A stretch of 64,000 bases of DNA from Gibbula magus (lineage: Eukaryota; Mollusca; Gastropoda; Trochida; Trochidae), in NCBI GenBank assembly GCA_936450465.1, contig OW388292.1, forward strand, positions 30,082,368 to 30,146,367, read 5' to 3'. The number at the start of each line of letters is the position of its first letter. Position 1 is the stretch's first letter. The translations under genes were made by a program, and so were the position numbers. The notes beneath the pieces were generated by a model that saw only the letters and a list, made by a program, of their open reading frames with translations, was not told the origin of the DNA and did no database searches. This document shows, piece by piece, positions 3,100 through 24,574 of this stretch.

Positions 3100-6000
3100 A
3101 TGTCTTTTACACTACAAAATGCAACTAATTTATCACAAACAATGTACAACAATTCATCAGTAACGGGACGGGATATGTCTAGACGTATCTTGGTAGAGAA
3201 GGTGATCCAACATTTTGGAGAAGAAATGTTACCTTTACATTCCCCTGGAATGGCAACTTTACTTGTGTTCAGGAAGCATGTTGCCAAGAATCTTAGAATT
3301 GTGGATGATGAAGAGAATAGTTTTATGGATGATTGTGTGAAGAAAGTTGGCAAACAAATCATGAAGGAGTCTAGGGCATTAAAACGTGACTTCAAATCGT
3401 ACAACAAACGTATTGACAGGGACATTGCATCAGAGTGTATAAGTGAGACACTGATAAAGTTACTGTCATCAATCAGCCCAAAATTTGAAACCTCACTGCA
3501 GACGCTAATGATAGGTAACATCATCAGCTCCATGGTTACATGTCAACCAACACCATTGCAAATAGCCATAGGGGTGTTGTTAGGAGATCACAAGATGCTC
3601 ATTGAGGAACTTTACAAGTATGATGTCTCCTGCTCATATGATGAAGTCCGTCGAAAAAGTCATCAGTTGTCTATCTTCCCCTCATCAATATGAAACCCAG
3701 CGATCCAACAACGGATCACCAAGGGCTTTGAAGTCACCAGAAATTCAAATCAAGACATTCTTGTCCTCACCTGTGATCAAGCGATCTACAAGATTGTTTT
3801 AGACATTATCTTTCACCAACCGTTGCTACTGGAAACCATTGTGCCCATTCTAGGTGGGATGCATTTCATCATGGATTTCGTAAGCAGCATTGGAACTCTA
3901 ATGGAAGACAGTGGTTTGAAGGAAATCCTGTCAACAACTTTTGGCTCCATTGAAAAGATGTTGCAGGGCAAAAAGTATCCACAAAATGTTCGTGCCCTAC
4001 GACTGCTTACAGAAGAATTGCTCCGACCCGTCTTGGAGAAGGAAAATTCGGACATAAGCAATATGGATGATCTGGAGGATGCTCTCGATGCACTCTCAGT
4101 GCAGAGTCGCACCACAAAGCTGTGGGTATGTAACATCATCAAGCCAACATTTCTGATGATGAGGTTTTGTCGAGCATCACATGAAGGAGACTGGCCTCTG
4201 CACATCAAAACCGCTGAGGACATGCTGCCCTATATGTTTGCTGCACACAAGTACAACTATGGTAGATATGGGCTCTACTTCGTTCGTTCCATGACCTGGC
4301 TTGGCCAAGAGATGTTGGACAGATTCTGCAACGGTCAGCAATCGCTTCACCATAATGCTGGGATCTACAATGGACAATGGAGCGACATATTCATAGAGAC
4401 GAACTGGATGAGAAAAGGACATGGTCCAGGTGGCATTATTGGAACAACAGAAAGGCCTCAAACCATGGCAACATGGGTGTACAGTATGGATGCTACCATG
4501 ACCATGACCGGAGACCTCAAGAAAATGTCTGGAAATGAAGAGGCAGTGCAAATGACCCACAAGGAAGAATCGCCAAGTCGAATCAATGGGGATGGGGATG
4601 ATCGTCAGTCGTTGCGCAAAATACAGCTGTCATGTATCAATCCCATGGATCCAGAAAGTCATGAAAGTGGATCTCTGCTCAACATCAGGACTGGTCAAGT
4701 AGCCCAACCAGATGTCAATGTTGAAAATGCCGTGGACATTGGGGGTGATCAAATGATCCAGTTCGAGAAATCCTGGCCAGAAGGTTTCTACACTTCACTC
4801 TCAAGAGAAGTCGTCAGATTCAACACCAAGAAGAAACATCTGACTGTCGGAGAACATGCTGTGATTGACCAAGAAGCCATCTATGCCCGCGTCATTGGCC
4901 TCCTAGTCAGTCAGAGGACACTCAACTTTCAGGAAGTCCTCGCTACAGAACTCACAGCCTATCCACCTTCCATGTTTCATGCTGATTGCCAAATGCGAGT
5001 TGCTACCGGAAAGTCCACACTGAAGAAGAACATTAAAGTCGATGTCTCACAACGCTTGACAATGAGCCCAACTGCTCTCGTGCTGGATGTGTCAGCTGTT
5101 ATTTGGACACTTGATTCGCCTGCTCAGGGAACTGTTGCGACTTTCATATCTGGATTCAAGGCATGGCTCTCTCTGCTTTTGTCTGGAGCTGATGTCTACT
5201 TGTGTTTTGACAGATATCATGACTACTCAACGAAAAGTAATACCCGATCTGCCAGAGCAACAAGTAGCCGTATCCATCATCTGACACTGACAACTCCATT
5301 GCCTGCTCGAGATACAGTGCTCAAGAACTACACAAACAAGGCACGGTTAAACAACTTATTTGTGAGCAAATACTAAGTGATGTTGACTTCTTGCTTCAAT
5401 CAACTCAGTATCACAAGCTAGTACTTACAGCAGATGAGTCCGAGCCCACACAAGTGTCTGAAGGACAAACAACTCTTCGTGAAGATCTCTCTTCATCTCA
5501 TGAAGAAGCAGACATCTTCCTCACCCAACAAGCCATCCACATTGCTAAGGAGGATCCAGAATCAAGAATCGCTGTTGTTTCTGATGATACAGATGTGTTT
5601 GCTTTGCTACTGCACTTCTATTCGAGTGAGAAGCTAGAGTCACCAATGACTATGCAGTCCCCAGTCAAGGGTCGAGCTTGTATTGACATAAAGGAAACTG
5701 CTCGCAAACATTCTGACATCACGTCCTCAATCCTAGCACTCCATGCCATTACTGGATGTGACTCAGTTGCAGCAACATATGGAATTGGGAAGACAAAAGC
5801 AGTAAAGGTGATAAGACAAGGCCACACACTTGATCAACTTGGTAAATCTACGGCAACTCTCACCAACGTGGTCAACCAATCAACTGAGTTCATGGCTGCA
5901 TGCTATGGTTGTAAAGCACCATGTTCTTCCATGACGGAATGCAGGCAGCAGCTGTGGGCACAGAAAACAGGAACATCAACTGCAGCACCAAAACTCTGTG

Positions 6001-6443
6001 GCTTACCACCAACAACTCAAGCATTTGAGCAAAATGTTTACAGAGCACACTTCCAGGTTGCTCAGTGGTACACAGCCCTTAGTGGAGATCCACCTTCTCT
6101 CAATGCGGTGGATTATGGTTGGGAAGCAGATGAAACAAATAAGTGTCTCATCCCAAGAAATATGACAGAAGGAGTACCCTATGCTCCTGAACAAATCTTG
6201 AAGCTGGTCAAATGTGTTTGCTCTTCACAGCTACCTTGTAAAGGGACAAACTGTGGGTGCAGGGGAAGTCAACTTCCTTGCACGATGTTCTGTGCCTGTG
6301 GTGGTGGTCAAGGCTGTTTGAATCCTTTGAACACACGGGACACTGACGAAGCAGTCAATCAAGAAGAAGACGACACGGCCAACAATCATGGCGAACCTGA
6401 TGACTTTGCAGACGAAATCATTGATGAGGATGAATATGTGTAA
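3100..6443 (+). pseudogene. transposon-encoded protein with XPG/PIN-like nuclease region and Cys-rich tail, broken
   Basis: Three open segments form one gene of about 1,100 codons. They are 3100-3690, then 3694-5376 in the same frame after a TGA at 3691-3693, then 5359-6443 after a -1 frame change near 5355. The middle part has LGGMHFIMDF and QWSDIFIETNWMRKG, landmarks of a multi-copy invertebrate family. The last part has HEEAD and SDDTDVFALLL, then GCDSVAATYGIGKTKA, a helix-hairpin-helix-like segment as in FEN1/XPG nucleases. A cysteine-rich stretch follows at about 6205-6320 (CVC, NCGCRG, CTMFCACGGG), like a tesmin/TSO1 CXC region, and then an acidic tail. The start at 3100 is the first ATG of the open frame; the true N-terminus could lie upstream. 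The likely role is transposition of the surrounding element. I did not locate a DDE triad with confidence. Confidence 0.75.
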
Positions 6444-6500
6444 AATGTACGATTTGTGGTATTTTGTGGTATTTTGATGATGTTCTTGAATGCATGCTTT

Positions 6501-6843
6501 GGCGGCCATCTTGGATTATTATTATCAAGAGTCAACAAATTGTCTTAAAATAGGACAAAAGAATCCTTGTCCTTGAAAAATATATCTTAATACCCAACAT
6601 TATGAATCTACTGGGGCAATATCCATAGTCATTATCAGCGATAGATTTATGTCACTATTTTGACCTCCATGGCGGCCATCTTGGATTTTTTTTTGTCAAG
6701 AGAATCACAAAATAGTTTATAATAGGATGATAATATTCCTTGTCCTTGACAACATATATAATGACTCCAAAATCACGATTCTACTACGTTTTTAATAAAA
6801 CCATTTTCATTGATGGATTTTTGCTCACTATTTTTGCCACCAT
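6501..6843. repeat. two-unit degenerate tandem repeat in the right subterminal region
   Basis: Units of about 170 bp start at 6501 and 6671, each with GGCGGCCATCTTGGATT, then TCAAGAG, an AATAGGA segment and CCTTGTCCTTGA. The start of a third unit at 6844 forms the terminal repeat itself. The right end is therefore a short array of the same terminal motif. Confidence 0.75.
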
Positions 6844-6898
6844 GGCGGCCATTTTGGATTTTGAAAAACCCACAAGGGTGGCGAGTGGCCACCCGGGT
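6844..6898 (-). repeat. right terminal inverted repeat
   Basis: It is the inverse complement of 2456-2510. It ends GTGGCCACCCGGGT and is followed by TTAA sharing its last base. Confidence 0.85.
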
Positions 6899-7305
6899 TA
6901 AATTTCAAGTATATACTAGGGACAACTGAAAAATGAAAAAAACCCATTGTTAATAGACAAAACAAGCTTTCCTTGAAATGTGGGATCCTGCCACTGGACT
7001 ATATGTTCTTGATGAGGCTGGCGATCTTGTAGCTGAGATAGCCGAAGTATTTAGGAAATTGTTACTCAAATTTCTCGGTTAAGGCTTGTGGGATAGATCT
7101 TATGGTGAGTGTTTTCAGGGTAGTCTTGATGATTAGACTTGCTGGATATTCATTGAGTGGGGGTAAATGTGTCCTTTCGATGTTTTGGTTCTTTATTGAG
7201 GGTATCAGGTTTACAGATGGATTTTATCACATCTTGTGAGTGTGACTATGCTTATTTAGTGGATGATAACATGAACTGTATTGTGTGTACTGGTCAGTGT
7301 GTTTG

Positions 7306-10755: not shown

Positions 10756-10995
10756 AAAGGTGAAGTAGAGATGTGTTTGTGATGTCTAATCTTGTATTTA
10801 GACATGGGGCTGCTTGATTTTATTTTACTTACATGTAAGGTGCATTCATTGTGTCTTTTGGGGTCACATATGCCAAACGTTATATATAATGTTATAAAGT
10901 CTTCAAAACGAAAGTCATGAAAACCTACTGTTTTGTATACTGACTGTAAGTAGTAATTTCTGATCGTAAACCGGACAATGCAGCGAGATTGAGCG

Positions 10996-11051
10996 AGGGA
11001 GTGAGTTATTGTTTAACGCCGCTTAGGCAGTATTGCAGCCATTAGCGGCGA
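10996..11051 (-). mobile_element. LINE 3'-tail fragment
   Basis: On the minus strand it reads TCGCCGCTAATGGCTGCAAT, then a GCGGCGTTAAACAATAACTC segment and ACTC. It matches the last 55 bases of the LINE copies at 44,740-44,796 and elsewhere. Confidence 0.75.
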
Positions 11052-11111
11052 TAGCGATATTGACGCGCGTCAACAAGTCTAAGGTTATTTTGGAAATATA
11101 TTTAAACATAG

Positions 11112-11425
11112 GTGAGGTGAGTTGGGAGTTTAACGTCGCTTTCAAGATTATTTCACTTACATGTGTTGCTAGTAATTTGGCAGGGAGAAACCCCGCAACG
11201 CCATGTATCTATGCATTGCAGTGAAACCTGCGAGCATCGGCTGTAACTAGCGAACCATGGGTGGTACTACGCTGAAATACAGCGTAGCATTGCACCCAAA
11301 CCTTACTGCGTGAAGAACAGTTCTCTACTGCAGACAAAGTTGCCGTGCCCCTGGCGGGATTTGATCCCCGGACCTCTTGATCCGAAGCCGAACGCGCTAA
11401 CCACTGCACTATCCCGCCCGCCCCC
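11112..11425 (-). mobile_element. tRNA-derived SINE, full length
   Basis: On the minus strand it opens with a tRNA-like head at about 11345-11425. This has an A-box-like TAGTGCAGTGGTTAGCG and a B-box region GGGATCAAATCC in which the usual GGTTCGAATCC has decayed. A body of about 230 bp follows, shared with copies at 23579, 47029 and 62830. It ends with AAGCGACGTTAAACTCCCAA and CTCACCTCAC, matching the LINE tail. SINEs of this type are transcribed by RNA polymerase III and mobilised by a partner LINE. Confidence 0.8.
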
Positions 11426-11613: not shown

Positions 11614-11915
11614 TGTGGAGATCAGCGGTTCCCGGCAGCCAGCGGTGTCCGACGTCTTCCGAGTGCAGCTCCGATCAGCCGAGAGTTCCCGAACTGGGCC
11701 GACGTCGGATTCCGAACAACCCCGAGGACTGCCGATCTCCGCAGAGCAACGGGGAGTCTGTCGATAGCACTGTGAGTATAAGGACGTAATATTCCCTGCT
11801 TGCGGTGCTGTTTGGCTCGTGCACTATTAGTGCATATATATATTACATGCTTATCTAATGCCTAACATGCTTAGTTAACCTCAATGTAATTCTAGTGAAT
11901 CCCATATTCACTACA
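11614..11915 (+). repeat. 5' LTR
   Basis: It begins TGTGGAGATC and ends TTCACTACA. It differs from 21602-21903 at four sites (near 11706, 11730, 11782 and 11848). A GAGTATAAGG segment near 11773-11782 could serve as a TATA-like element. TGGCGCTGTGAAC begins two bases after the end and is the candidate tRNA primer site; I cannot name the tRNA. Confidence 0.85.
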
Positions 11916-13100
11916 GTGGCGCTGTGAACAATTCGGAGCGAGAATTTGTAATGTAACTGTAACTGTAACTTTTGTGCCATTCATCACAGTTATCATATTT
12001 GGATTTCCCGCTGAGGCCGGGGTGTCTACACGGTGCTTGTTCACCTGTGTCAGCCACCTTATTATGAATATTTCCTACACAGTTTATTTAAATTGTGTTG
12101 TTGTGTGCTTTTCATGTGTCTAATTCTCTAACTTTTGTGCTTTTCATTCTACTCGTGGTTGGAACTCAATGCACGTGCGGTAGACGTGCATGGTAGCCAT
12201 ATTGAATGTTGTGAAGACTACACGTGAGTGACACTTTTTCATTCAAATTGATGTGTTTCATGCTGTGTTATTGACAGTGACAATAATTGACAATATTATT
12301 GCAAATTTTCATTCAGGATACGTTTGAATAATTTGCACTTGTGAATTTTGATGAAAATTCTATTTATTTTCACCCTTGAGTAAATGACTTGGGCGGAAGT
12401 TACCGCTGCGCAGAATACATGCGCAGTCGTGTTTTGTTTACATCCGGTACTGATGTCAACATTCTAGATATTCAACATGTGCAACAATTCAAGATTGACA
12501 ATTTAATTATCTCTTTCCATCACTGTTATTGATTTAACGTGATGAGTTTCAAGCTCTACATGTTTGTTTTGCTTGAATATAATAAGTAAACAAGACTTTG
12601 TTTACACTTCCGGTTGGACTTTGACATTTTTTCATGTTTGTTTACATTTGGATTAAACATGAATGAGATGTTTTTCAGTTGTCAAATGCACATATTTGTG
12701 AATTATTGTGAAATACAATATCTGCAGACACATTCTTTAGGATTTTCATTTGGAACTAATGGATTTTTCCTACATTTCTTTCATGATGTACTGAAATTCT
12801 TTCCTACACTTTGTAATTAAGTGTATGGTTTTCTAGACCTACAGTCTACATACATGAATTTACATTGATTCTTCATAACATTGATAAAGACAATGAATAT
12901 TCTCTACAATTTCTACATCAATTTCTTGGATTGTTTACATTGACATTGACAATGTGTGTTTCTATGTTCTACATTTGATTGACTGGATATTTCAACCAAT
13001 GAATTCTATTTACATCTTTACATGGTGCATGATGTTTTATGAACAGTGTTTTCACTGACATTAGTTGTGTTGTGTCACTTTCTTTCGTGGATTTTTCGAC
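11916..13100 (+). other. retrotransposon 5' leader
   Basis: About 1.2 kb lies between the 5' LTR and the first gag ATG at 13101. It is AT-rich, unlike the coding part. No coding region is supported in it. The putative primer-binding site lies at its start. Confidence 0.7.
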
Positions 13101-15174
13101 ATGGATTCTTTGTTCTTTATCAATCGTTTAAAGTCTCGTGACTTGCGTTCTTCACAATTAACTACGGAACAATTCGATGAAGTGATGACCCAAAATCAGA
13201 TTTTCTGGATTCTGAATTTTTCACGGAAGATGTTCTCTCTAAATGTAACTTTCAATTCAATCCTAACTTGAATGAACGCCCTTATCTTTATGATGAAGGG
13301 GAGGAGGAGACCGATGGTAATTACGAGAACACTTCTCCGGTGAAGTTAACTGGAGCCACCGAAGGGCAAAGCGGTTCTTATTTTCCGCTTGGTGGAGAGG
13401 GGGTAGAGGCAGGAGTCAACAATGCCGACGTAGATAAAGTGCATGTGCTGTTCGCGGGTTATGTGAGCGACTCAATCAAATCTCTTGCGAAGTCTACTTA
13501 TGACGGAAATCAAACCCTGAAAACCACTCTCGAAACGAATTATGCCAATCTAAAAGAGGAATTAAAAGTACGTGAACAAGACTTTATCACAGCTTTGCAC
13601 CGTTTGAGTGGTAAAATCTCCTCGAAAAGTGAGCAAACCGACACGGCTCTGACACATATCACCCATAAAGTCGCTGATGGAGAGGCAGGAACTAATAAGA
13701 AATTAGATTCCATAATTCGTCGGTGCGCAGACCTAGAGAGGAAAACTGATGACTATCAGGATGGTTTGAGGGGTACATTGATAGACCTAGATCGGCGCGC
13801 AGATGACAAATTTGCAAAAATGTCAGACATCTTCATGTCAAGAATCGAGGAGATAGATACCAACTTTAAGGATGAGCTATCCAAGTTACTTCGTAAGGTT
13901 GACACATCAAATGAGGATCGTATCTCTCAAAAGATTCACATCATTCTCTCAAGGACGAGTCGCGTACAGACTTTAGAATAAAGCAACCACACAGCGCGCA
14001 ACCGTCATTATCTAACCCCCAGCCTTCCACAATGGATGACATGATCCGAAATGTCACAGGGATAGCAGATTCTAGGAATCTAAAGAAAACTCTAGAATTC
14101 GATGAGGGTTTGGATCTAGACTTGGATGAGTACCCACCCTGGGAGCACAATAAATCATATCGTCGTAGGTCAACCCCGCGTCGTCAGGACAACCAACAAG
14201 CTAGTTTGAAACCCGTGTCGAACGTAATTGTCTTTGATGGGAAGGAAACTTGGACTTCGTTCGAAATGAAGTTTAACCTATTTGCCACCTCCGAAGGATG
14301 GTCAGACAGAGAACGGTGTTACCAACTGTGTTTCGCAGGGGAGGCAAGCCATTACTACGCTAACTGTAGGAGTGCGGAACCAGACATCAATTTCACGAAA
14401 TTGATGAACAAACTTAGGAAACGCTTCAGCATTATAGAATCAGCCTCATCCGCTAGACTTCGTCTCACTACCATGACTCAACAGCCAGGAGAATCGCTTG
14501 AAGCCTGGGCTGAACGGGTGTCAAACACTGCTCACATCGCTTACTCTAATCTCCCGGAATAGTTCGTGGAACAGGAGGTGAAATCTCATTTCTGTAGAGG
14601 ATGTAGTGACCATGAAGCAGCAACACTTGCCTACAATCTCCGACCACCGACGTTCGAGAAAGCCATAGAGGATATCAGGTACTTCCTTCACAGTGAAAGG
14701 GGGACACACCCAAAAATAAGGCGAGAAGTGAGAGTTGTACAAGCTGAAGGGGACTGGGACTCAACAGTTCCAGAAGTGAGAGCACTCAGTCGTTCTCAAT
14801 CACCAAATCGCTATGACAGAGAGGCTGACACTCGACGCCTGGTGAAAGAGGTAATGAAGGAGGACATAGACAACATCCGAAGCGACATGGATATCATCCG
14901 GTCGGATGGCATCAGAAATCGTGAGGATCTTCAGGCAATACGGAAGGATACCGAGGCACTCAAGTCCTCCATCTCTCATCTCACCAAGCTGATGGAGAAT
15001 AGATTTACCCCACGGTCACGTTCTCGTTCTCCCAGCCCATCGCGCAACAACAATTGTTACGGATGTGGACAGTCAGGACACTACAAGGCTGAGTGTCCCC
15101 AAAGGCCACGTTCGCCAACTTCGGAGAGGACAGTTTCTTTCCAGGAGTCACCAATGAAGCCTTTAAACTCCTAG
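13101..15174 (+). pseudogene. gag: gag, interrupted
   Basis: The ATG at 13101 opens a frame that passes to the next (-1) frame near 13181-13199 and again near 13900-13925. It then stays open to 15174 apart from a TAG at 14560-14562. The N-terminal part is acidic and helical with likely coiled coil. The capsid-like part (about 14220-14700) contains YYANCRS and QQPGESLEAWAERV. A basic RSRSRSPSPSR stretch and one zinc knuckle, CYGCGQSGHYKAEC (15056-15097, CX2CX4HX4C), close it. Gag forms the particle and binds RNA through the knuckle. The last codons overlap the frameshift signal at 15162. The breaks could be mutations or base-calling errors. Confidence 0.8.
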
Positions 15175-15206
15175 GGGGTGAGTCACCTGACCTACACTCT
15201 CCCCCT
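15162..15206 (+). promoter_or_regulatory. -1 ribosomal frameshift signal between gag and pol
   Basis: TTTAAAC (15162-15168) is in the correct phase (T TTA AAC in the gag frame), two codons before the gag stop TAG at 15172. A hairpin follows: AGGGGG (15173-15178) pairs with CCCCCT (15201-15206), and after one mismatch GAGT (15180-15183) pairs with ACTC (15196-15199), closing a 12-base loop. The spacer is about 4-5 bases. A slip back by one enters the frame open from here to 15362. TTTAAAC is a well-known slippery heptamer, used for example by coronaviruses. Function is inferred from the design. Confidence 0.8.
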
Positions 15207-18200
15207 CATGGTCTTGAAGCTAAAGGTCAACCTCCATGGCCCCCGGACACCTTCTTTGTAAATCACGACAGCTGGTTTGGACACACCCCTCTTTTAGATG
15301 AGTGGGGGGAGATCGATGAGGAAACAGGTCTACTGATAACTGATAACCTGTACGAGAGCTAGAACAGTTCGCCATTATGCCTAGAACATTTCACCAAAGT
15401 TCAAGTGATCTATCAGTATGCTTGATCAATGTTACAGATCACAATGTCAGGATGGACAAAGGACAGCTTGTGGGTCACGCCTATGACGCTGAACTTATAC
15501 AACCAGATGGACCGACCCCCACTGCTCAGATTGCAGGAGGAAGTCAACAGCCTTGCATCCCCGATATGAAGAGGGGGGATTCCGTCGGGGCTGTGCCTGC
15601 CCATCTTCAGGATTTGTTCAAACGATCTAAAGGTCATCTGGAAATCGAGGATCAACGCCAGCTTGCTCTTCTATTAGAGGAATTTGAGGACGTCTTTGCG
15701 CAACACGATCTGGATCTTGGAGAATTCACCGCCATTGAACATGCAATAGACACAGGGGATCATGTACCCGTCCGACAACGCCTCCGCCGCGCCCCCTTAG
15801 GATTTGCCCAAGAGGAGGAAGCACATCTTAAGAAAATGTTGGATGCAGGAGTGATCCGGCCCTCCACTTCGGAGTGGGCTTCGGCACCAGTACTGATCCG
15901 GAAACGTGATGGTAGTGTCCGTTACTGCATTGATTTTCGCGAGACAAACTCCAAATGTGTTAAGGATAAATTCCCACTTCCTCTAATAGATGACTGTTTG
16001 GATACCTTTGCGTCAAGTCGTTGGTTTTCGAAATTGGACGCTAACTCAGCCTACTGGCAGGTGAGGATCAAACCCGAAGATTGTAAGAAAACTGCCTTCG
16101 TGACCAGGTACGGGTTGTTTGAACATGTCAGGATGGCATTCGGACTCTGCAATGCGCCAGCCACCTATGCCCGTGTAATGTCATTAATACTTGCCGGACT
16201 GAATTGGGACATAGTACTAGCCTTCTTGGATGACGCCATTGTCAACGGAACGGATGTGCAGCAACATTTCACTAACTTAAGACAGGTGTTACAACGATTC
16301 CGGCAATATGGACTGAAGCTCAAACCACGAAAATGTGAACTGTTTCAACAGGAGATAGAATTCTTGGGTCGAATGGTGAGTCAGGGTAAATTGATGGTCA
16401 ACCCATAGTCTAACAGCTGTAGAGCAATGGCCCCGACCTAAGTCCACCAAGGAGGTGGAAGCTTCCTAGGGTTTGCCAATTATCATCGAGCTTTCATCAA
16501 GGAGTATGCTCAAATAGCCATTCCACTGTACGACATCACCGGGAAGAAATCATTTGTGTGGACAGACACCCAAGAAGAGAGTTTTAAATGCCTCAAACAC
16601 AAACTCGTCACCACGCCCGTCCTAAGTCTACCAACCATGAATGACCCATTTATCCTGGACACGGATGCCTCAAATCATGCCATTGGAGCTGAACTAATCC
16701 AAGTGCAGGAAGGCCAGGAGAGGGTAATAAACTACGGAAGTTTCTCCCTCACCTCAGAACAGCGACGTTATTGCACCACCCGAAGGGAACTTCTTGCGGT
16801 GGTGAGGTTCACAAGGCAATATAGACATTATCTACTAGGACGACATTTCGTGTTACGGACAGACCACAACAGCCTACGCTGGTTATTGAACTTCAAATCT
16901 CCCGAGGGTCAACTAGCTAGGTGGTTGGAGGAGCTCAGTCAATACGATATGACTGTAGAACACCGTCCTGGGAATAAGCACCTGAATGCGGACGGCCTCT
17001 CCCGGCTGGGAGATGACCGTACCTGCAACGAATATCAACCGCTCGTGGAAGTGAAGAACTTACCTTGCGGGGGTTGTAAATACTGTACCAAGGCCCAACA
17101 GAATTGGGGATCATTCATCAAGGACGTGGACTATGCCGTTCCATTATCCCAACGTCCCCGATATGTGCAAGCTGTCCCAAAAGGAGAGGATCCTGTGGGT
17201 ATGAACTACTCGCTTCAACATATTGAAGTACAACCTCCCGTCCAGCAGGTGACAATGAGCTCGGGCACCAACTTGAACACACTTCCCCTTGAGGTGCGTA
17301 AACTCAGCAATCAGGGGGACTCCTTAACAATGGGGTATTCTCCTGATGAATTGACCCAATTACAATGGAAAGACTCGGATCTACTCCTTCTTTTGGAGTG
17401 GCTCCATGGAGACAAAGAACCAATGGACGCAGAATTGCAGCTCTCCAGTCCGGCAAGTAAGTCATACTGGATGGATCGAGGACTGTTTAAGTTAAACTCT
17501 GACTGTGTAATTGTTCGAATTGCCCCTTTGACATATCCGCCCCGAGAGCAGATCCTTGTTCCCTCAGCAGCCCGAAAGGACGTTCTATCGGCTATACATG
17601 ATATTCCGACCGGAGGACATTTAGGCATTACAAAAACTAAGCAGAAACTGCAACACCACTTCTACTAGTACCGATGTGGACAAGATGCAGCTGAGTATGT
17701 CAAAGGCTGCCATTTATGCAACAAAAACAAGAAACCAAATCGGAAAGCTCGTTCCAATCTAACCACCTTTCATGCAGGTGCACCCATGGAGAGGGTGCAC
17801 CTAGACTTTATCGGGCCACTCCCGGAAAGTACAAGAGGTAACACATGTATACTCATGATGGTGGACCAATTCACCAAGTGGGTTGAGTGTATCGCCTTAC
17901 CCAACCAAAAAGCAGAGCTGACTGCGATGACTGCAATTAATGAATTCTTCACCCGATTCGGATTCCCATTTCAGATCCACACCGACCAAGGTCGAAACTT
18001 TGAGAGCAAGGTATTCCAAGCAGTGTGCGAAATGCTTCATATCACAAAGACCCGTACAACGCCGTACCGGCCGTCATCTAACGGCCAAGAGGAGCGATAT
18101 AACCGTACCCTCATGCAAATGATACGATGTCACGTGACCAAATCTCAAACGACCTGGGACGAATACTTGCCTCAGTTAGCAAGTGCCATTCGATCTTCGG

Positions 18201-18886
18201 TGAACCGACAGACCGGATATACTGCCAACAAACTTATGCTGGGACGTGAGGTTAATCTACCGGCAGACCTTATGTTCGGGGAACCCATGGACATGGAAAG
18301 GTCCCCAGACATGGACGACTACACCAGTGCATTGAGAGCGGCCATTATATTCGCTCATAATCAGGCGAGAAACCAATTAGGTACTTCCCTAATGCGCATG
18401 AAAAGGGACTATGAATTGAAAGCTAGGGTTCATCAGGTTGAGGAGAACCAACCAGTGTATGTTCTAGATTCAGCTGTCACCCCAGGCCGTTGCAAAAAGT
18501 TGTGTCCTGTTTGGAAAGGCCCGTATTGGTTGGAGAAGAAACTCTCACCAACTCTGTTCATTGTAAACTCTCGTAATAGGCAATTCACAGCTCACCATGA
18601 TCGTGTGGAAATGTGTAGGGATAGAGTTCTCCCCCTGTGGTTACAACGGAAGGTTTCTCGCCAGGGGGCCGCGGCCAACTTGGCTGCGGTCCCTCAACCT
18701 CTAGATTCTGAGGATACTCCCGAGATTGTTTATTGTCTCTGTCAAAGGCCTGATGATGGCGGGTTCATGATCGCATGTGATTCCTGTGATGAGTGGTTCC
18801 ATGGTAACTGTGTAAAAGTAACAGAATCCGCAGCAGCCACAATGCCAAAATACTAGTGCCCCATCTGTGTTTCGGATACCCTGTAA
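15169..18886 (+). pseudogene. pol: pol: RT, RNase H, integrase and PHD finger, interrupted
   Basis: Entered by the -1 frame, the first part (to 15362) shows no D-T/S-G protease motif. The next frame (from 15347) holds RT with SAPVLIRKRDGSVRYCIDFR and AFLDDAIV, an F-L-D-D version of the catalytic motif. Frame changes follow near 16406 and 16445-16460. RNase H (about 16650-17010) has ILDTDASNHAIGA and TDHNSLRWLL. Integrase has an H-H-C-C finger around 17605-17725, DFIGPLPE, HTDQGRNF and GQEERYNRTL for the D-D-E triad, and a GPY-type module (VWKGPYWLEKK). A C4HC3 PHD finger spans 18734-18868. In-frame TAG codons lie at 17666-17668 and 18854-18856. Pol copies RNA into DNA and inserts it. Confidence 0.85.
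18734..18868 (+). other. PHD finger at the integrase C-terminus
   Basis: The spacing of YCLCQRP, IACDSCDEWFHGNC and CPIC gives the C4HC3 pattern of a PHD finger. The DSCDEWFH segment is typical of fingers that read histone H3 tails. A TAG at 18854-18856 falls just before the last Cys pair, so this copy would lose those ligands. Its position after the GPY module is where chromodomains sit in other gypsy lineages, suggesting a targeting role (inference). Confidence 0.8.
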
Positions 18887-18962
18887 CAACTTGTTCTCTG
18901 TTACAGGTTATTACAGCTTACTCTTTGCGTTCCGCAAGCAAACACACGAACAATCAGCAATC

Positions 18963-21104
18963 ATGTCTCGTCAACGCTCACCTGCCGAGGAAATACGCGC
19001 AGTCGTCAGCGAAGAAATCAATCGGGAAAGAGAGGAAAGAGAGAGAGAGACAGTACGGGAGGAAGTGCGCAGGATGTGGGCTCTCACCCAGACCCAGAAC
19101 ACGGTTTGGATAGCCCTGATGGAGCAGGAGAGGAGACAGTCAGGACAGGCTCCAGTCGCCCCTCGACGGGAGCCTGAGGTCATGGTTACCCTACCAGCGC
19201 CAGCTCCAAGGTTCCACCAAGGGAATACTTCAGTCACCAGACCCCAATCGAGGAACGCCCGTTCATCACGAGTAACCAGCCTGTCTCCAGCTCGGACCAG
19301 CCACGCAAGAGGACGTTCCCCAAATCGTCGCCCTAGGACCCCACCGCCTAAGTTTCAGGTGGTGGTGGAGCCTCCGTCACCAGACCGGAGAGGACGCTCG
19401 CCAGTTCGACGCTCACCACCTAGGTCTCGGGTGGTGGTCGTCCGCTCAAGGAGTCCCCTACCAAGAAATCCACCCAGGTTAACCCCAAGACAACGAGAGG
19501 AAGAACGGAGGGGAGGAAGACAAACTCCGCATTGACCTTCCTCAACCTACAGTCGTTCGAGTCCCCGGACAAGAGAGGAGACCCACCGTCGCCCAGAGGA
19601 GACCCACCGTAGTTCAAGGAGTCCCCAGACAAGAGAGGAGACCCCCCATCGCCCTGACTATCGCACCTTGCCAAGGGATAGACGGCACGAGGCCTTCCCA
19701 AGCACTCTGCCAGCCAGCACCCCCTCCGGATCTCAGTGTCCGGTGGTGGGATGTCCTAAGTGGACAAGGAAGTTGAGGGACCACGCCTTCAACGCTCATC
19801 TGCCCCGCTACCTCCGGGACCGTTATAGCCAGGAGATAGTTGATGATGTGGATGTTCTGGACAAGACCCTGCTAGCCCTCAGACAACTGGCCATGTGGAT
19901 ACTTGGACCTCAGGCTACCATCAGCAATCTTTTCCACCATGTACGAGGCAGCCTTCACATGCCGGGGAACTGCATTCTGCCGGAGACGGCTATTGGAAGG
20001 AAGGAAGGTTGGCAGATACCGACAACATTCCGTCTCCATCCGCTCAACTCCCCCGCTTGTCTTCGTCACTGGCGGATGGGCCTTCATCTGGTTAATTTAA
20101 TCTCGGCCGAACAACGGAAAGAATTCCGCGCATTCCTGATGCCGGTACCACGATCAACACTGCCTGGACCCTCCAACACAAATGTGGAACACACAGAGAC
20201 AGAGCCAATGTGGCTCGAGGAGGATCGGGAAACGGAAACTGAACATCAGGAGACCGACACCCAGACTAGGGAAGAAGCTGCCATCATCCCCGACGACGCA
20301 AGTCCTGTTCCCCTGGTGATCGACAGCCACTACCACCTGGACAGGACCTGGAGGGCACTCAATCTGCCCGGAAGCCCCTCCACCACCCGTCTGTTGGAGG
20401 AAGGACCACAGCCAAGTCGCCGCCACTCGGTCATTGTCACAGGAGGGGTGGAGGTGTATTGTGACCCCGAGACGCACCCAACGGCGCCATCTCCGGAAGA
20501 AGGGATCGTCAGTGCGGTGGGAATTCACCCCAAGAAGGTGGGGACGGCTACGGACAGCCAATTCCTACGCATGATCGAGCTCTGGAGGAAACCCCGAATC
20601 GTTGCAGGCGAGATGGGCCTGGACCGATCCGTGTCGCCATCGCTATGGGCACAGCAAGAGGAAGAGCTGACCCGTCAACTCCGTTACATCCCCGGCAACA
20701 CTCCAGTCGTCCTCCACATCAGAGGGGTGAATCAGGATCTTTATGGAGTAGACCCCCATACAAGATGCCAGCACCTTCTGTCCAGGCACCTGGATACCAA
20801 TCACCACCTACACGGAAGAGTGCGGGAATGGACCCAAATCTTCCCAAACACCTACTTTGGAATCGCAGGCCGTGTCAGATCCTTCGACACGGTCCAACAA
20901 AAGGGCCTGGCCGCCATCCCTCTCCAACGGCTACTCCTGGAGACGGATGCCCCGTACATGCCCCCTCACGGACACCAGACCAACAGCCCCACCCTCATTC
21001 GGGCAACGGCCGACCACATTGGGGACATCTTGGGTATCTCGTCGGAAGAGGTAATGGCCGCAACCTATGACAACGCCCGCCGGCTATACAAGATGTTCGA
21101 CTGA
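18963..21104 (+). pseudogene. third ORF: Arg/Ser-rich region, C2H2-like finger, TatD nuclease domain
   Basis: A frame of about 713 codons starts at ATG 18963 and is broken only by TGA at 19533-19535. The N-terminal third is charged, then Arg/Ser/Pro-rich with two similar blocks. A C2H2-like finger follows: CPVVGC then RDHAFNAHLP (about 19737-19806). From about 20320 there is a complete TatD-family domain: DSHYHLD, VGIHPKKV, VAGEMGLD, VVLHIRG, HHLHG, LLLETDAP and a C-terminal YDNARRLYKM. These carry the His, Glu and Asp metal ligands of TatD DNases. TatD enzymes are metal-dependent 3'-5' exonucleases or endonucleases. I infer that the product acts on element DNA or replication intermediates. 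The stop may be a CGA to TGA change. Sequence after the stop (19536-21104) remains open. Confidence 0.85.
19555..19650 (+). repeat. short tandem repeat inside the third ORF
   Basis: Two units of about 60 bp share GAGTCCCC, GACAAGAGAGGAGACCC and CGCCC. They encode repeated RSxSP-TREET-like segments between the premature stop and the zinc finger. Confidence 0.6.
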
Positions 21105-21601
21105 GTGAGGGGGGCAATGTCATCAAATTTGGATTCCGGCCATATTCCGCCGGAAATTACTGTTTCCTCCGCAGGAAGTTACTTGCGGACGGTTTGTACA
21201 TAAACAAAAATCTTTGGAAAGTATAAGCATATTCCTCCGTTCAAAAAGAATGGAGGCGTTACTTAAACAATGATAATATAGAGTGCCAAATCAGCACCAC
21301 GTCCAGGGTCGAAGTGATGATACAGATTATGAACACAAATAAGCTGGAGATATAGGAAGATAACACGGGGGAAAACCTTGGAACTATCACAAGCTCTGAG
21401 AAATTAAGATGTAACAAACTGGATTTTAGAACAGAACTGGCAAGGCATTGGATTAAAGTTCAAACACCAAGGACACAACGGGAAATCAATTGTTAATCAA
21501 GGCAACGCGGAGAATCCAAGAACTCCTTCAAAGCGCAAGACATTACTTGTGAAAGGGACTATGGGCCACCCATGGATGGGGGCTCATAAGACAGGGAGGA
21601 G
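21105..21601 (+). other. retrotransposon 3' region with two candidate polypurine tracts
   Basis: GAGGGGGGCAA (21107-21117) lies just after the third ORF and is followed by TGTCATC. AGACAGGGAGGAG (21589-21601) abuts the 302-bp repeat. Either could prime plus-strand synthesis. If the first is the true tract, the real LTR would be 21118-21903 and the 5' LTR copy would be truncated. Confidence 0.6.
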
Positions 21602-21903
21602 TGTGGAGATCAGCGGTTCCCGGCAGCCAGCGGTGTCCGACGTCTTCCGAGTGCAGCTCCGATCAGCCGAGAGTTCCCGAACTGGGCCGACGTCTGATTC
21701 CGAACAACCCCGAGGACTGCAGATCTCCGCAGAGCAACGGGGAGTCTGTCGATAGCACTGTGAGTATAAGGGCGTAATATTCCCTGCTTGCGGTGCTGTT
21801 TGGCTCGTGCACTATTAGTGCATATATATATTAGATGCTTATCTAATGCCTAACATGCTTAGTTAACCTCAATGTAATTCTAGTGAATCCCATATTCACT
21901 ACA
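21602..21903 (+). repeat. 3' LTR
   Basis: It is 302 bp, equal in length to 11614-11915, with four substitutions and no indels. It is followed by CTATTCATTT. Confidence 0.85.
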
Positions 21904-22405
21904 CTATTCATTTTTGAAAATGAGAATGAGAATGTCGAAATGGTAAATACAATCATCCTACGCCCTGGTGCAAATAATGTTTACGATTTGAATTATTCGT
22001 CAAGCAGACAAAGTTGTATTTTAGTATGAAAAAAGCACTATCGTGAACTTGATGCTTAGTTTGATGACTTGAAAACGGTCTATTACATGATCCATACACG
22101 TAGTTGTTTCACATGCAATATCAAATGTGGTTAAACAACAAATGAATTAGTGTAATATACAATGTAACTTACTTTATTTCGATCCGAAAAGACCTATTAC
22201 ACGTACATTGTAGACACCCTAGACACGTATTATTGTTTGAGACCACTCCATTTTGGTCACCTCCTTGCAACCACGCGCTTTTGATTGTGTGCAGCACGTG
22301 AAGTTAGAATCTCAGCTTGGCAACATGACATTCATATGCTGTCCATGCATCACAAGTTGAAATGAACAACGTCCGTGCAGCCACGATTTTCGCTTAACGC
22401 TTATA
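21904..22405. other. non-coding, nothing recognised
   Basis: AT-rich sequence with no supported gene or repeat. Confidence 0.5.
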
Positions 22406-22465
22406 GTGAGTGAGTGAGTTATTGTTTAACGCAGCTTCGGCAGTATTGCAGCCATTAGCGGCGAT
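22406..22465 (-). mobile_element. very short LINE tail insertion
   Basis: The last 60 bases or so of the LINE family lie here on the minus strand. They are flanked by TAACGCTTATA (22395-22405) and TAATGCTTATA (22466-22476), a target duplication with one change. The copy contains essentially only the conserved 3' tail, a severe 5' truncation. Confidence 0.8.
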
Positions 22466-22555
22466 TAATGCTTATAAAGAGTTATCATGGACTGAATAGC
22501 TAGTTAAAACTGTATATTTTCTCATAAACAATCTTATAAAAAAATTCATCTGTAT

Positions 22556-22986
22556 TGTCCCCCGCCGCCGCGGAACGGGGGATATACGTCCGTCCGTCCC
22601 GTTTCTTGTTGTTAGCGTGATTCCTCATGAACCGCTGCATTTAGTCTTCAAATTTGGTACCAGTCTTCATTAGGGGAATACGCAGATACCAGTCGATTTG
22701 GGTGACCTTGATTTTTTTCAAGGTCACTACGAGACGATGATTGTCAAAATGTTGGCACGATATCTCATGAACTGCTGCACCTAGATTCTTCATATTTCGT
22801 ACCAGTCTTCATTTGGGGACTACACGGACACCAGTCGACTTTCAAGGTCACTACGAGACTTTGACCAGTTTTTAAAATATTGTTGGCCCGATATAACAAT
22901 AATTGAATCAAACATGTAATGGTCACTACTCGGTATAAGACGTGTGTCCATCCCTTTAGCTCATTTCTTAATTGCGGCGGGGGACA
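22556..22986 (+). mobile_element. CCCCCGCCG-ended inverted-repeat element, copy 2
   Basis: The ends TGTCCCCCGCCGC (22556-22568) and GCGGCGGGGGACA (22974-22986) are perfect inverted complements. Two internal units of about 130 bp share CATGAAC-GCTGCA, TCTTCA and ACCAGTC-TTCAT segments. TCAAGGTCA occurs at 22718-22726 and 22842-22850, and its inverse at 22703-22711. It has the same family and layout as 9980-10341. Confidence 0.8.
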
Positions 22987-23025
22987 TGCTCACATTTGTG
23001 ACAATTACTTGTTTGATATATATTC

Positions 23026-23345
23026 GAGTTCTGTTTCGGAAAAGAAATTCTAAGTAACATTTCCATTGAAACGGTCAAAAAAAATAACTCGAAGAAGTTG
23101 AAAACCCCAAAAGGCACATCTACACATGATGATTGTTCCACACACCAAGTTTCGTTGAGATATGTCCTATAGGTTTTGAGTTCTGTTCCGGAAACGAAAT
23201 TCTAAGTTACATTTCCATGGAAACGGTAAAAAAAAATAACTCGAAGAAGTTGAAAACCCAAAAGCCACATCTACACATGATGATTGTTCCACACACCAAG
23301 TTTCGTTGAGATATGTCTTATAGTTTTCGAGTTCTGTTCCGGAAA
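23026..23345 (+). repeat. tandem repeat, period about 151 bp, two units plus a stub
   Basis: GAGTTCTGTTYCGGAAA starts at 23026, 23178 and 23329. The two full units are nearly identical, with CATGATGATTGTTCCACACA in each. The third start breaks off at about 23345, where the coding-like segment begins. Confidence 0.85.
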
Positions 23346-23347
23346 CA

Positions 23348-24574
23348 ATGTTTGCGGGGGATAATTACCTCTTCATCATCGATATGGTGTTCACTTACAT
23401 TGCACTTCATTTGTATCGCTGTGCAATCCGACGAGGCAACACCAAGCTAGCCAACCAGTGCTTCTCCCGGTTTTCAGACATGTTCTTCATTACCAACATG
23501 ACCCAGTATCAGGAACTGAGCGTCAGAGCTTATGTCACGAGACTGCAAGCTCCCGCAAAAGTCCAGGAATTCTTGGAGGTGAGGTGAGGTGAGTTGGGGT
23601 TTAACGCCGCTTTCAAGAGTATTTCACTTATATCGCAGCTGCTAGTATTACGGCAGGGAGAAAGCCCGCAACGCCAAGTGGCTATGCTTTGCGGTGAAAC
23701 CTGCGAGCATCGGCTGGAACTAGCGAACCATGGGTGGTACTACGCTGACATTCAGTGTAGCATTGCACCCAAACCTTACTGCGTGTAGAACAGTTCTCTA
23801 CTGCAGACAAAGTTGCCCTGCCCCTGGCGGGATTCGAACCCCGGACGTCTTGATCCGAAGCCGAACGCGCTAACAACTGCGCTATCCCGCCCCCAGGAAT
23901 TCTTGGAGCCAACAAACTCAATGTCAGTGTCGGGCAATGATTCCAGAGGTGAAGGCGGCGATTTCACTTTAGAGGCCAAGAATCGCAGCATTAAGATCTC
24001 GCTGCCTCCTGAAATGCCCAAACCGTCACAATGGCAGAGAGTTTGTCGCAACCTTGACAACCTGGATTGCGTGTGTCAGCACATTCATGACTTGACTGGT
24101 ACATCATCAGTCGAGTCTGACTACAGCATCAATCTCGCCAGCGAGATCAATCACTGGCGTCATCATTTACGGCAAAGCAGCTACTTCCTGTTCCCTTTTA
24201 AGTCTTTGACACATGTCAGCTTAGCCGGCGGTTCATTGGACACGCAGTTAGTGTCATTTGCTAAGAAAGCAAAAGCCAACAAGAAGGCATTTGTAGATGG
24301 CATTCTGGCCGGCATTCATGTTGAACGAGTTTACATTCTCCCCGGAGATCGAGACAAAGCTCAGGATGTCTCAAAGAAAACAAACAAAGAGCTTCTTATT
24401 CTCGTTCAACAGGAAATTGACTCCATCAGGGAGCTGGGAGCACGAGCTCGGGCTAACTCCTTCCAGAAGGAGCTGGACTTCAACATCAAAACGTGTACAA
24501 AAACGGTAATTCTTAACTTCTTGCAAGTTTTGACTGACTGCCGCGCCAAACTGTTGACCCAGCTCGAGGGCTAA
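23348..24574 (+). pseudogene. unassigned protein-coding relic split by a SINE
   Basis: The open frame 23348-23578 starts MFAGDNYLFIIDMVF and reaches a 16-bp sequence. That sequence reappears at 23893 after a SINE, and the same frame then runs to TAA at 24572-24574. Insert plus duplication is 330 bases, a multiple of three, but the SINE supplies a stop at 23585-23587. Landmarks are NRSIKISLPPEMPKPSQWQR, CQHIHDLTGTS and a Lys-rich region near the end. The whole is about 300 codons without the insert and intronless. It resembles C-terminal parts of large hypothetical proteins that I recall as multi-copy in molluscs, so it may be transposon-derived. No function is claimed. The left border abuts a tandem repeat, so the N-terminus is probably missing. 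Confidence 0.55.
23579..23892 (-). mobile_element. tRNA-derived SINE with 16-bp target duplication
   Basis: CCAGGAATTCTTGGAG occurs at 23563-23578 and 23893-23908. The 314 bp between begin, on the minus strand, with GGGCGGGATAGCGCAGTTGT (A box within), then GGTTCGAATCC (B box). They end in GGCGTTAAACCCCAACTCAC. This is the cleanest full-length copy in the window. Confidence 0.92.

What the first reader, a model, noticed from the sequence alone, without database searches (positions are those of the whole stretch)
18963..21104. A TatD-type nuclease ORF carried by a Ty3/gypsy retrotransposon
Downstream of integrase, inside the element bounded by matching 302-bp repeats, lies an ORF with an Arg/Ser-rich region, a C2H2-like finger and a complete TatD signature set (DSHYHLD, GIHP, GEMGLD, LHIRG, LLLETDAP). 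TatD is a cellular metal-dependent DNase family and not a standard retroelement component. All metal ligands I can check are present, suggesting selection on activity until recently. A role in processing cDNA ends, in competition between elements, or in resisting host DNA sensing is speculation.
Basis: partly seen in the sequence, partly recalled or inferred. Interest (0 to 1): 0.88.

Follow-up and report, generated by a model that had tools for sequence, protein, structure and literature searches.

The report
TatD nuclease gene inside animal retrotransposons
A family of jumping genes in a sea animal, probably a mollusc, carries as its third gene a captured DNA/RNA-cutting enzyme that selection has kept intact over long times, although the copy seen here is damaged; this points to an unrecognised nuclease step in the life cycle of these elements.

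Summary
Confirmed, with corrections. Window 11614-21903 is a Ty3/gypsy element with, downstream of integrase, an ORF3: Arg/Ser-rich part, C2H2-like finger, helical domain and TatD domain (E=3.6e-31). It is no one-off insertion: 12 of 20 LTR loci in the genome carry ORF3; the three ORF3-less loci that were read lost RT, integrase and ORF3 in one shared deletion ending inside the TatD frame. More distant families (about 40-45% identical) have it behind integrase-PHD or Gag. The TatD domain is under purifying selection (median dN/dS 0.16; wrong frames 1.2-1.6). The window copy is broken: stops in PHD and ORF3, protease missing, eight TatD codons gone with the second-histidine motif; all six ligands stand in 7 of 10 sister loci. 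ORF3 proteins form a clade beside animal TATDN2. A pol-less relative has Gag-protease-ORF3 in one frame. Likely role, inferred: a TATDN2-like 3' exonuclease/RNase acting on the element's own RNA:DNA or cDNA ends. Closest precedent: DEDDy-exonuclease ORF3s of bdelloid elements. My paper searches showed no TatD described in a retroelement.

The parts
11614..11915 (+). 5' LTR (TG...CA); 4 mismatches to the 3' LTR
11769..11777 (+). candidate splice donor inside the LTR (ACT|GTRAGT), kept in 18 of 19 LTRs aligned
   Evidence: function inferred
11916..11932 (+). candidate primer binding site, nearly the same next to the 5' LTR of A2, A3, A4, A6, A8, A9
   Evidence: tRNA match not tested
13268..13981 (+). 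N-terminal gag-region ORF
14032..14562 (+). Gag (Retrotrans_gag, just below the Pfam cut-off)
14566..15174 (+). nucleocapsid, CCHC knuckle; same frame as Gag, one stop between
15175..15376 (+). short NC-RT gap; protease frame seen here in sister copies A2 and A8 is missing in this copy
15377..16408 (+). reverse transcriptase (RVT_1 2.6e-27)
16556..17668 (+). RNase H (9e-33) and integrase zinc domain (1e-7)
17786..18700 (+). integrase core (rve 5.2e-14) and C-terminal part
18734..18856 (+). PHD finger (3.8e-10) at the integrase C-terminus, cut by a stop at 18854-18856 in this copy
18890..18906 (+). candidate splice acceptor (pyrimidine tract then AG) upstream of the ORF3 ATG; same letters in 7 of the 8 aligned loci that have the stretch, the AG changed in A9
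   Evidence: function inferred
18963..19535 (+). ORF3 N-terminal part, Arg/Ser-rich; ends in a stop at 19533-19535 in this copy
19737..19799 (+). ORF3 C2H2-like finger (C-x4-C-x9-H-x4-H)
   Evidence: spacing read from sequence
19800..20150 (+). ORF3 helical middle domain shared by relatives in abalone and sea urchin
20319..21092 (+). ORF3 TatD domain (PF01026); eight codons missing near 20813
21050..21209 (+). stretch (end of TatD frame and following bases) retained in the deletion derivatives L032-L034
21588..21601 (+). candidate polypurine tract
21602..21903 (+). 3' LTR; flanks CTAG/CTAT, a 3-of-4 match (five sister copies have perfect 4-bp duplications)

Best explanation
ORF3 is a long-standing third gene of a Ty3/gypsy lineage. 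It was taken once from the ancestor of animal TATDN2 (a class II, HxH-type TatD nuclease) or a close relative, joined to a zinc finger and a helical domain, and kept by selection while the lineage split into families whose ORF3s are now about 40-45% identical. Shown: location, spread, shared gene order, selection, nearness to TATDN2. Inferred: the protein is made from a spliced message (donor in the LTR, acceptor upstream of the ORF3 ATG), uses finger and basic Arg/Ser region to bind nucleic acid, and acts as a 3'-5' exonuclease / structure-specific RNase on the element's own replication products: trimming unpaired 3' ends or clearing RNA from RNA:DNA hybrids left by reverse transcription before integration.
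For: PF01026 hit and fold. 104 matches in the own genome (lower bound). By LTR, a search not biased by ORF3: 12 of 20 LTR loci carry ORF3. Ten sister loci, chosen because they match ORF3: Gag in 7 of 10, integrase+PHD upstream in 7 of 10 (in A11 about 5 kb away); LTR in 9 of 10, on both sides in 5, perfect 4-bp TSDs in those 5. Nine loci of more distant families, also chosen by ORF3: integrase+PHD in 5, a PHD piece in 1, Gag-protease in 2, none in 1; L120 has Gag-PR-RT-RH-IN-PHD-ORF3, with RT 64%, RNase H 72%, integrase 78% and 53% to the window. dN/dS of the TatD domain 0.160 (42 of 55 pairs, dS above 0.25), finger+helical 0.187; wrong frames 1.21 and 1.64, antisense 1.15; L115-L116 0.05-0.06. 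Same range as integrase 0.17, RT 0.32, Gag 0.30. ORF3 clade 100/98 next to TATDN2-type 97/94. [quoted passage not shown] E. coli TatD trims 3' overhangs of DNA (PMC4176340, passages). L029/L117 keep ORF3 in one reading direction with Gag-protease, in L029 as one open frame, compatible with action inside particles.
Against: No activity, expression or splicing data. Deletion derivatives moved recently (L032 LTRs 4 of 280, L033 1 of 282 mismatched) without ORF3, so it is not needed in cis. In L029 and L117 the second-histidine ligand is Asn, so in that branch the protein may bind rather than cut (though H152A of E. coli TatD, which I take to be the corresponding residue, stayed active; PMC4176340). 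dS is saturated between the distant families. Some close pairs, above all with the A8 copy, reach 0.5-0.66.
Confidence: 0.45

Rival explanations
1. ORF3 is a counter-defence protein: the nuclease destroys or shields against host small-RNA, RNA:DNA or DNA-sensing responses to the element rather than processing its own cDNA.
For: Position of an accessory gene after pol. Between some families ORF3 has changed more than pol: window against L120 45% (TatD part) with RT 64% and RNase H 72%; A1 against L115 40% with integrase 64%. TATDN2 works in germ cells on R-loops (PMC12709183).
Against: Against L031 integrase (40%, partial) and ORF3 (41%) differ equally. The TatD domain is strongly conserved within families with no sign of positive selection in pairwise dN/dS; no host target known.
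Confidence: 0.2
2. ORF3 acts mainly as a nucleic-acid-binding chaperone or nuclear-targeting protein; catalysis is secondary or lost in some branches.
For: Finger and helical domain are shared by relatives in abalone and sea urchin; ligand changed in L029/L117 although dN/dS of L029 against L031 and L120 is low (0.11-0.13).
Against: All six ligands are kept in 7 of 10 sister loci and in 4 of 9 distant loci; E and D stand in 9 of 9 of the latter.
Confidence: 0.2
3. TatD is a passenger: a host TATDN2-like cDNA caught by the element, neutral or decaying.
For: The window copy is broken, and copies without ORF3 moved.
Against: dN/dS 0.16 with frame controls above 1; presence across families and relatives in other animals.
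Confidence: 0.03
4. A multiplied host gene family that only happens to lie next to retroelements.
For: Gene models in Haliotis rubra and sea urchins are annotated as uncharacterised proteins; L119 shows ORF3 without pol in 8 kb.
Against: Same order gag-pol-PHD-ORF3 between LTRs with 4-bp TSDs; deletion breakpoint inside ORF3 in LTR-bounded derivatives; ORF3 in frame with Gag in L029.
Confidence: 0.03

Closest known systems
DEDDy-type exonuclease ORF3 of bdelloid rotifer LTR retrotransposons (Juno, Vesta; PMC5408684, passages read)
   Same: An extra enzymatic ORF downstream of pol between LTRs, of a 3'-5' exonuclease type that can act on RNA and ssDNA.
   Different: Unrelated nuclease type (RNase D-like against TatD barrel); there acquired at least twice and, by the authors, its intragenomic evolution shows no significant departure from neutrality; here one clade with strong purifying selection, finger and helical domains, and a Gag fusion.
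Animal TATDN2 (PMC12709183, PMC10085689, passages read)
   Same: HxH class II TatD domain, long N-terminal extension, neighbouring clade in the tree.
   Different: TATDN2 is a cellular gene; the TATDN2-type hits match only the TatD part of ORF3, not finger and helical domain; ORF3 is inside an LTR element.
2-ODD (AlkB-like m6A demethylase) ORF of orchid Ty3/gypsy elements (PMC9289625, passages read)
   Same: Host-type enzyme captured as an additional ORF of a gypsy element and retained through diversification.
   Different: RNA demethylase, not nuclease; plant; recent.
C-terminal integrase modules: chromodomain of chromoviruses (recalled; mentioned in a passage of PMC12440569); PHD fingers in Ginger1 transposases (PMC2836005, passages read)
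   Same: A chromatin-reader type module at the C-terminus of a gypsy-like integrase.
   Different: Here a PHD finger in an LTR element, followed by ORF3.

Membership tests
Ty3/gypsy (Metaviridae) LTR retrotransposon | pol order RT-RNase H-integrase | tested here: met
Ty3/gypsy (Metaviridae) LTR retrotransposon | LTR pair and target-site duplication | tested here: met
   LTR pair; TSD 3 of 4 bases in the window, 4 of 4 in the five sister copies with both LTRs
Ty3/gypsy (Metaviridae) LTR retrotransposon | aspartic protease between nucleocapsid and RT | tested here: not met
   missing in the window copy; open frame with protease motifs in A2 and A8, Pfam protease in L029 and its relative in L120, so the lineage has it
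Ty3/gypsy (Metaviridae) LTR retrotransposon | tRNA primer site and polypurine tract | tested here: inconclusive
   conserved stretches at both LTR borders; tRNA match not tested
TatD nuclease (PF01026) | profile match over full length | tested here: met
   108.9 bits, cut-off 27, 1-253/253
TatD nuclease (PF01026) | TatD fold | tested here: met
   model of moderate confidence
TatD nuclease (PF01026) | complete metal ligand set | tested here: not met
   second-histidine motif missing in the window copy; all six in 7 of 10 sister loci
TatD nuclease (PF01026) | nuclease activity | not testable with these tools
   no assay
TATDN2 group | HxH (class II) motif | tested here: met
   class rule from PMC10085689
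TATDN2 group | falls inside the TATDN2 clade | tested here: not met
   neighbouring clade, 100/98 against 97/94; no animal TATDN1 or TATDN3 rows were in the tree
TATDN2 group | R-loop resolving RNase activity | not testable with these tools
   no assay
DEDDy ORF3 of bdelloid elements | DEDDy (RNase D-like) exonuclease domain | tested here: not met
   only TatD and a sub-threshold amidohydrolase hit in Pfam for the TatD frame, none for the Arg/Ser frame

The most novel reading that the evidence does not exclude
A nuclease of TATDN2 descent is the normal third gene of an animal-wide gypsy lineage (molluscs, echinoderms and possibly more), doing a required step on RNA:DNA or cDNA ends inside the particle or nucleus; the cellular TATDN2 and this retroelement branch would then be two sides of one germline nucleic-acid pathway.
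Probability: 0.35. Interest if true: 0.85.

Novelty: new variant of a known kind. Interest (0 to 1): 0.72.

Why it matters
To my knowledge LTR retroelements are described as managing with RNase H and integrase as their only nucleases, apart from the bdelloid DEDDy cases whose use is unproven. An old, selected, largely ligand-complete TatD makes it testable whether gypsy elements need help with 3' ends or RNA:DNA hybrids, and gives a model for TATDN2 substrates. It also warns that genes annotated as TATDN2 or as uncharacterised proteins with a TatD domain in mollusc and echinoderm genomes may be retroelement ORF3s.

Tried and rejected
Rejected: passenger insertion (dN/dS); single host-gene insertion; ORF3 as an oddity of this copy.

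Led nowhere: viral contigs, two scans, no relatives. The genome-contig scan listed 80 bacterial loci, not used further. A search with the Gag-protease-ORF3 protein of L029, residues 430-1557, found nothing at E 0.001 among 7978 candidates. Whole-genome searches for PF01026, RT and integrase did not complete; the LTR search failed three times before it was answered. In all 31 requests did not complete: 13, 16-18, 24, 27, 34, 36, 38, 40, 42, 46, 48, 54, 57, 63, 68, 75, 78, 80, 82, 84, 86, 91, 93, 95, 97, 99, 100, 102, 105. So the share of integrase-PHD copies that carry ORF3, and the host's own TATDN genes, are not known here. Integrase and ORF3 trees both group L115 with L116, but there are too few distant rows for a congruence test. 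The second structure job was not used.

A slip of mine: in the query file made the TatD piece (and the integrase zinc piece) was translated out of frame. Its hits mark homologous DNA, not protein identity. TatD statements therefore rest on in-frame work: A2 query; L029 query; the other pieces of that file were in frame.

Rows dropped: and 96 codons that read as stops, gaps and frame-broken parts were left out; HSPs on the other strand, and those under 55% identity and pairs under 50 shared codons (60). Tandem ORF3 copies A3b/A3c are in the figures but not. Loci were fetched because they match ORF3, so 'ORF3 present' is no result there; what lies upstream is. Of one search's groups I read the window, 10 sister loci (two more, on C8 and C13, and a fragment on C12, not fetched) and 9 distant loci; loci matching only residues 215-437 at about 33% were not read. 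Of 8 LTR loci without ORF3, 3 were read.

Full report
WHAT IS THERE. The element spans window 11614-21903. Its LTRs (302 bp) differ at 4 positions. Pfam finds Gag (just under the cut-off), CCHC knuckle, RT, RNase H, integrase zinc and core domains, then a PHD finger at the integrase C-terminus. Downstream lies ORF3 (18963-21104): an Arg/Ser-rich part, a C2H2-like finger, a helical domain and a TatD domain over the full profile (E=3.6e-31). An AlphaFold model (mean pLDDT 70, 11 sequences) matches solved TatD structures first (best E=6.4e-13; 14 of the top 17 named TatD, TATDN or deoxyribonuclease). By sequence 9 solved chains match, the best being YcfH-type TatDs, with human TATDN3 among them.

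THIS COPY IS BROKEN. ORF3 is cut by a stop at 19533-19535 and the PHD finger by a stop at 18854-18856. In one search the PHD stop is seen in the window alone among the 8 loci that have the stretch; the letters of the ORF3 stop recur in A9 only. About 500 nt between nucleocapsid and RT are missing; there sister copies A2 and A8 have an open frame with protease motifs. The TatD domain lacks eight codons including the second-histidine motif. An uninterrupted ORF3 frame exists elsewhere in the genome.

THE GENE BELONGS TO THE FAMILY. The own genome (1.47 Gb, no name) has at least 104 stretches matching ORF3. The LTR search gives 35 matches, which I sort into 20 loci by position; 12 of them have an ORF3 match next to the LTR. 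Ten sister loci, chosen by ORF3 match, were fetched. Of these, Gag is found in 7 (A2-A8), integrase plus PHD upstream in 7 (A2-A6, A8, and A11, where about 5 kb lie between), PHD without integrase in A9, RT but no integrase in A7, and only the Arg/Ser part in A10. LTRs are found in 9 of 10, on both sides in 5, and those 5 have perfect 4-bp target duplications. One locus (A3) has three ORF3 C-terminal copies in tandem.

COPIES WITHOUT ORF3. Eight of the 20 LTR loci have no ORF3 match. Three were read (L032-L034). All three show the same junction, window 15569 to 21050: most of RT, RNase H, integrase, PHD and nearly all of ORF3 are gone but the last part of the TatD frame is kept. LTR pairs: L032 4 of 280 and L033 1 of 282 mismatched, L034 99.6% over 234. 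They are non-autonomous descendants of TatD carriers, and they show that ORF3 is not needed in cis. The other five, single LTRs or fragments, were not read.

SECOND FAMILIES. Nine loci with ORF3 at roughly 40-45% identity were read. L120 carries Gag, protease, RT (64% to the window), RNase H (72%), integrase (78% and 53% in two pieces), PHD (60%), finger and TatD in that order. L115, L116, L031 and L118 have integrase and PHD upstream of ORF3; L030 has a PHD piece; L119 has only ORF3 within 8 kb. L029 and L117 have Gag, CCHC, protease and ORF3 with no RT or integrase between; in L029 this is one open frame of 1572 codons between identical 198-bp repeats, with a 4-bp duplication if the LTR is taken to end two bases before the end of the repeat. 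Its Gag is 99% identical to that of L120, so this form probably arose by loss of the pol core. L117 has two stops in the mapped frame.

SELECTION. Pairwise Nei-Gojobori estimates: TatD domain median 0.160 (range 0.098-0.360) and finger+helical 0.187 (each 42 of 55 pairs, dS above 0.25). Controls on the same codons (46 pairs): in frame 0.174, +1 frame 1.21, +2 frame 1.64; antisense 1.15. Finger to TatD as a whole 0.21 (71 pairs, dS above 0.05), RT 0.32 (12 pairs), integrase 0.17 (19), Gag 0.30 (19), Arg/Ser part 0.40 (51). Close pairs, above all those with A8, reach 0.5-0.66, which I read as decay after insertion, with A8's broken frame adding misplaced codons. Among distant loci 0.05-0.39 where it could be computed, dS often above 1.5 and then unreliable; L115-L116 0.05-0.06. 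All six metal ligands stand in 7 of 10 sister loci (A2-A6, A9, A10); A7 and A8 have changed or missing ones, A11 lacks the HxH stretch. Of 9 distant loci 4 have all six (L031, L115, L116, L120); L029 and L117 have Asn for the second-motif histidine; in L118, L119 and L030 some positions were not covered or are lost.

ORIGIN. Protein searches found relatives with the same finger-helical-TatD layout in Haliotis rubra, Strongylocentrotus purpuratus and in records without a species name, and in two from a Sedimenticola MAG (possibly host DNA of a bivalve; my inference); Lytechinus variegatus has a relative of the TatD part. An Elysia marginata model, named retrovirus-related Pol polyprotein, joins an RT piece to a TatD piece (P0011). 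In a 42-row tree the ORF3-type rows form a clade (100/98) that also takes in P0013, a record I had put with TATDN2; next to it stand 9 TATDN2-type rows (97/94), both apart from bacteria (97/95). P0011 and P0013 are long branches. Animal TATDN1 and TATDN3 were not in the tree.

HOW IT PROBABLY WORKS. A splice donor motif in the LTR is kept in 18 of 19 LTRs aligned and an acceptor-like tract upstream of the ORF3 ATG is the same in A1-A6 and A8 (7 of 8 loci that have it); a spliced ORF3 message is inferred. HxH-type TatDs include TATDN2, described as an RNase with 3' exonuclease and endonuclease activity that resolves R-loops (PMC12709183, passages), while E. coli TatD digests ssDNA and RNA from the 3' end and trims 3' overhangs (PMC4176340, passages). 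Reverse transcription makes such substrates (general knowledge). The Gag-protease-ORF3 frame of L029 is compatible with ORF3 entering particles. Rivals (counter-defence, binding without cutting) remain open.

NOVELTY. Additional enzymatic ORF3s are known, the nearest being DEDDy exonucleases in bdelloid LTR elements (PMC5408684, passages). Searches of the paper library for TatD with retrotransposon (14 papers), with Gypsy (3), with LTR + reverse transcriptase + transposon (1), with transposable element (27), and for TATDN2 with transposable element (6) or with expansion + mollusc (0) listed no paper whose title or shown abstract start describes a TatD gene in a retroelement; the papers themselves were not read except passages of PMC6962438. 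Most subscription papers, and Repbase entries, are not covered. Passage searches for TatD in three surveys of animal LTR elements gave none (PMC12440569, PMC8220671, PMC8556966); a mollusc survey has no word beginning with 'nuclease' (PMC6238403). PHD fingers are known in Ginger1 transposases (PMC2836005, passages).

LIMITS. No expression or activity data; genome unnamed; counts are lower bounds; genome-wide searches by integrase, RT and PF01026 did not complete.

Noticed in passing
L012 (G000:C17:60492500-60501146): Three tandem ORF3 C-terminal copies about 1.68 kb apart, the two repeat junctions carrying the first 55 bases of an LTR; unusual internal amplification of the TatD part.
   Followed up: partly
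L029 and L117: The two pol-less Gag-protease-ORF3 elements differ much in the N-terminal and Gag part (dS 0.33-0.47) but hardly from nucleocapsid to TatD (dS about 0.02), as if they had recombined or converted recently.
   Followed up: partly
window 18734-18856: PHD finger at the integrase C-terminus, present in both element families (57-60% identical in L115, L116, L118, L120), a possible chromatin-targeting module.
   Followed up: partly
L030, reverse strand about 5942-7267: Long tandem array of short repeats inside the ORF3 linker frame.
   Followed up: no
window 10992-11419 and 22405-23892: Repeats (253 nt at 92%, 61 nt at 93%) flank the element on both sides, apparently another repeat family around the insertion.
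   Followed up: no
L015 (A5), positions 955, 2039 and 3125: Start of the gag-region ORF repeated three times at about 1.08 kb spacing.
   Followed up: no
giant squid genome paper PMC6962438 (one passage): A figure legend lists a 'TATDN2' gene among non-Hox, partly transposon-like genes in the squid Hox cluster; it may be an ORF3 of this kind.
   Followed up: no
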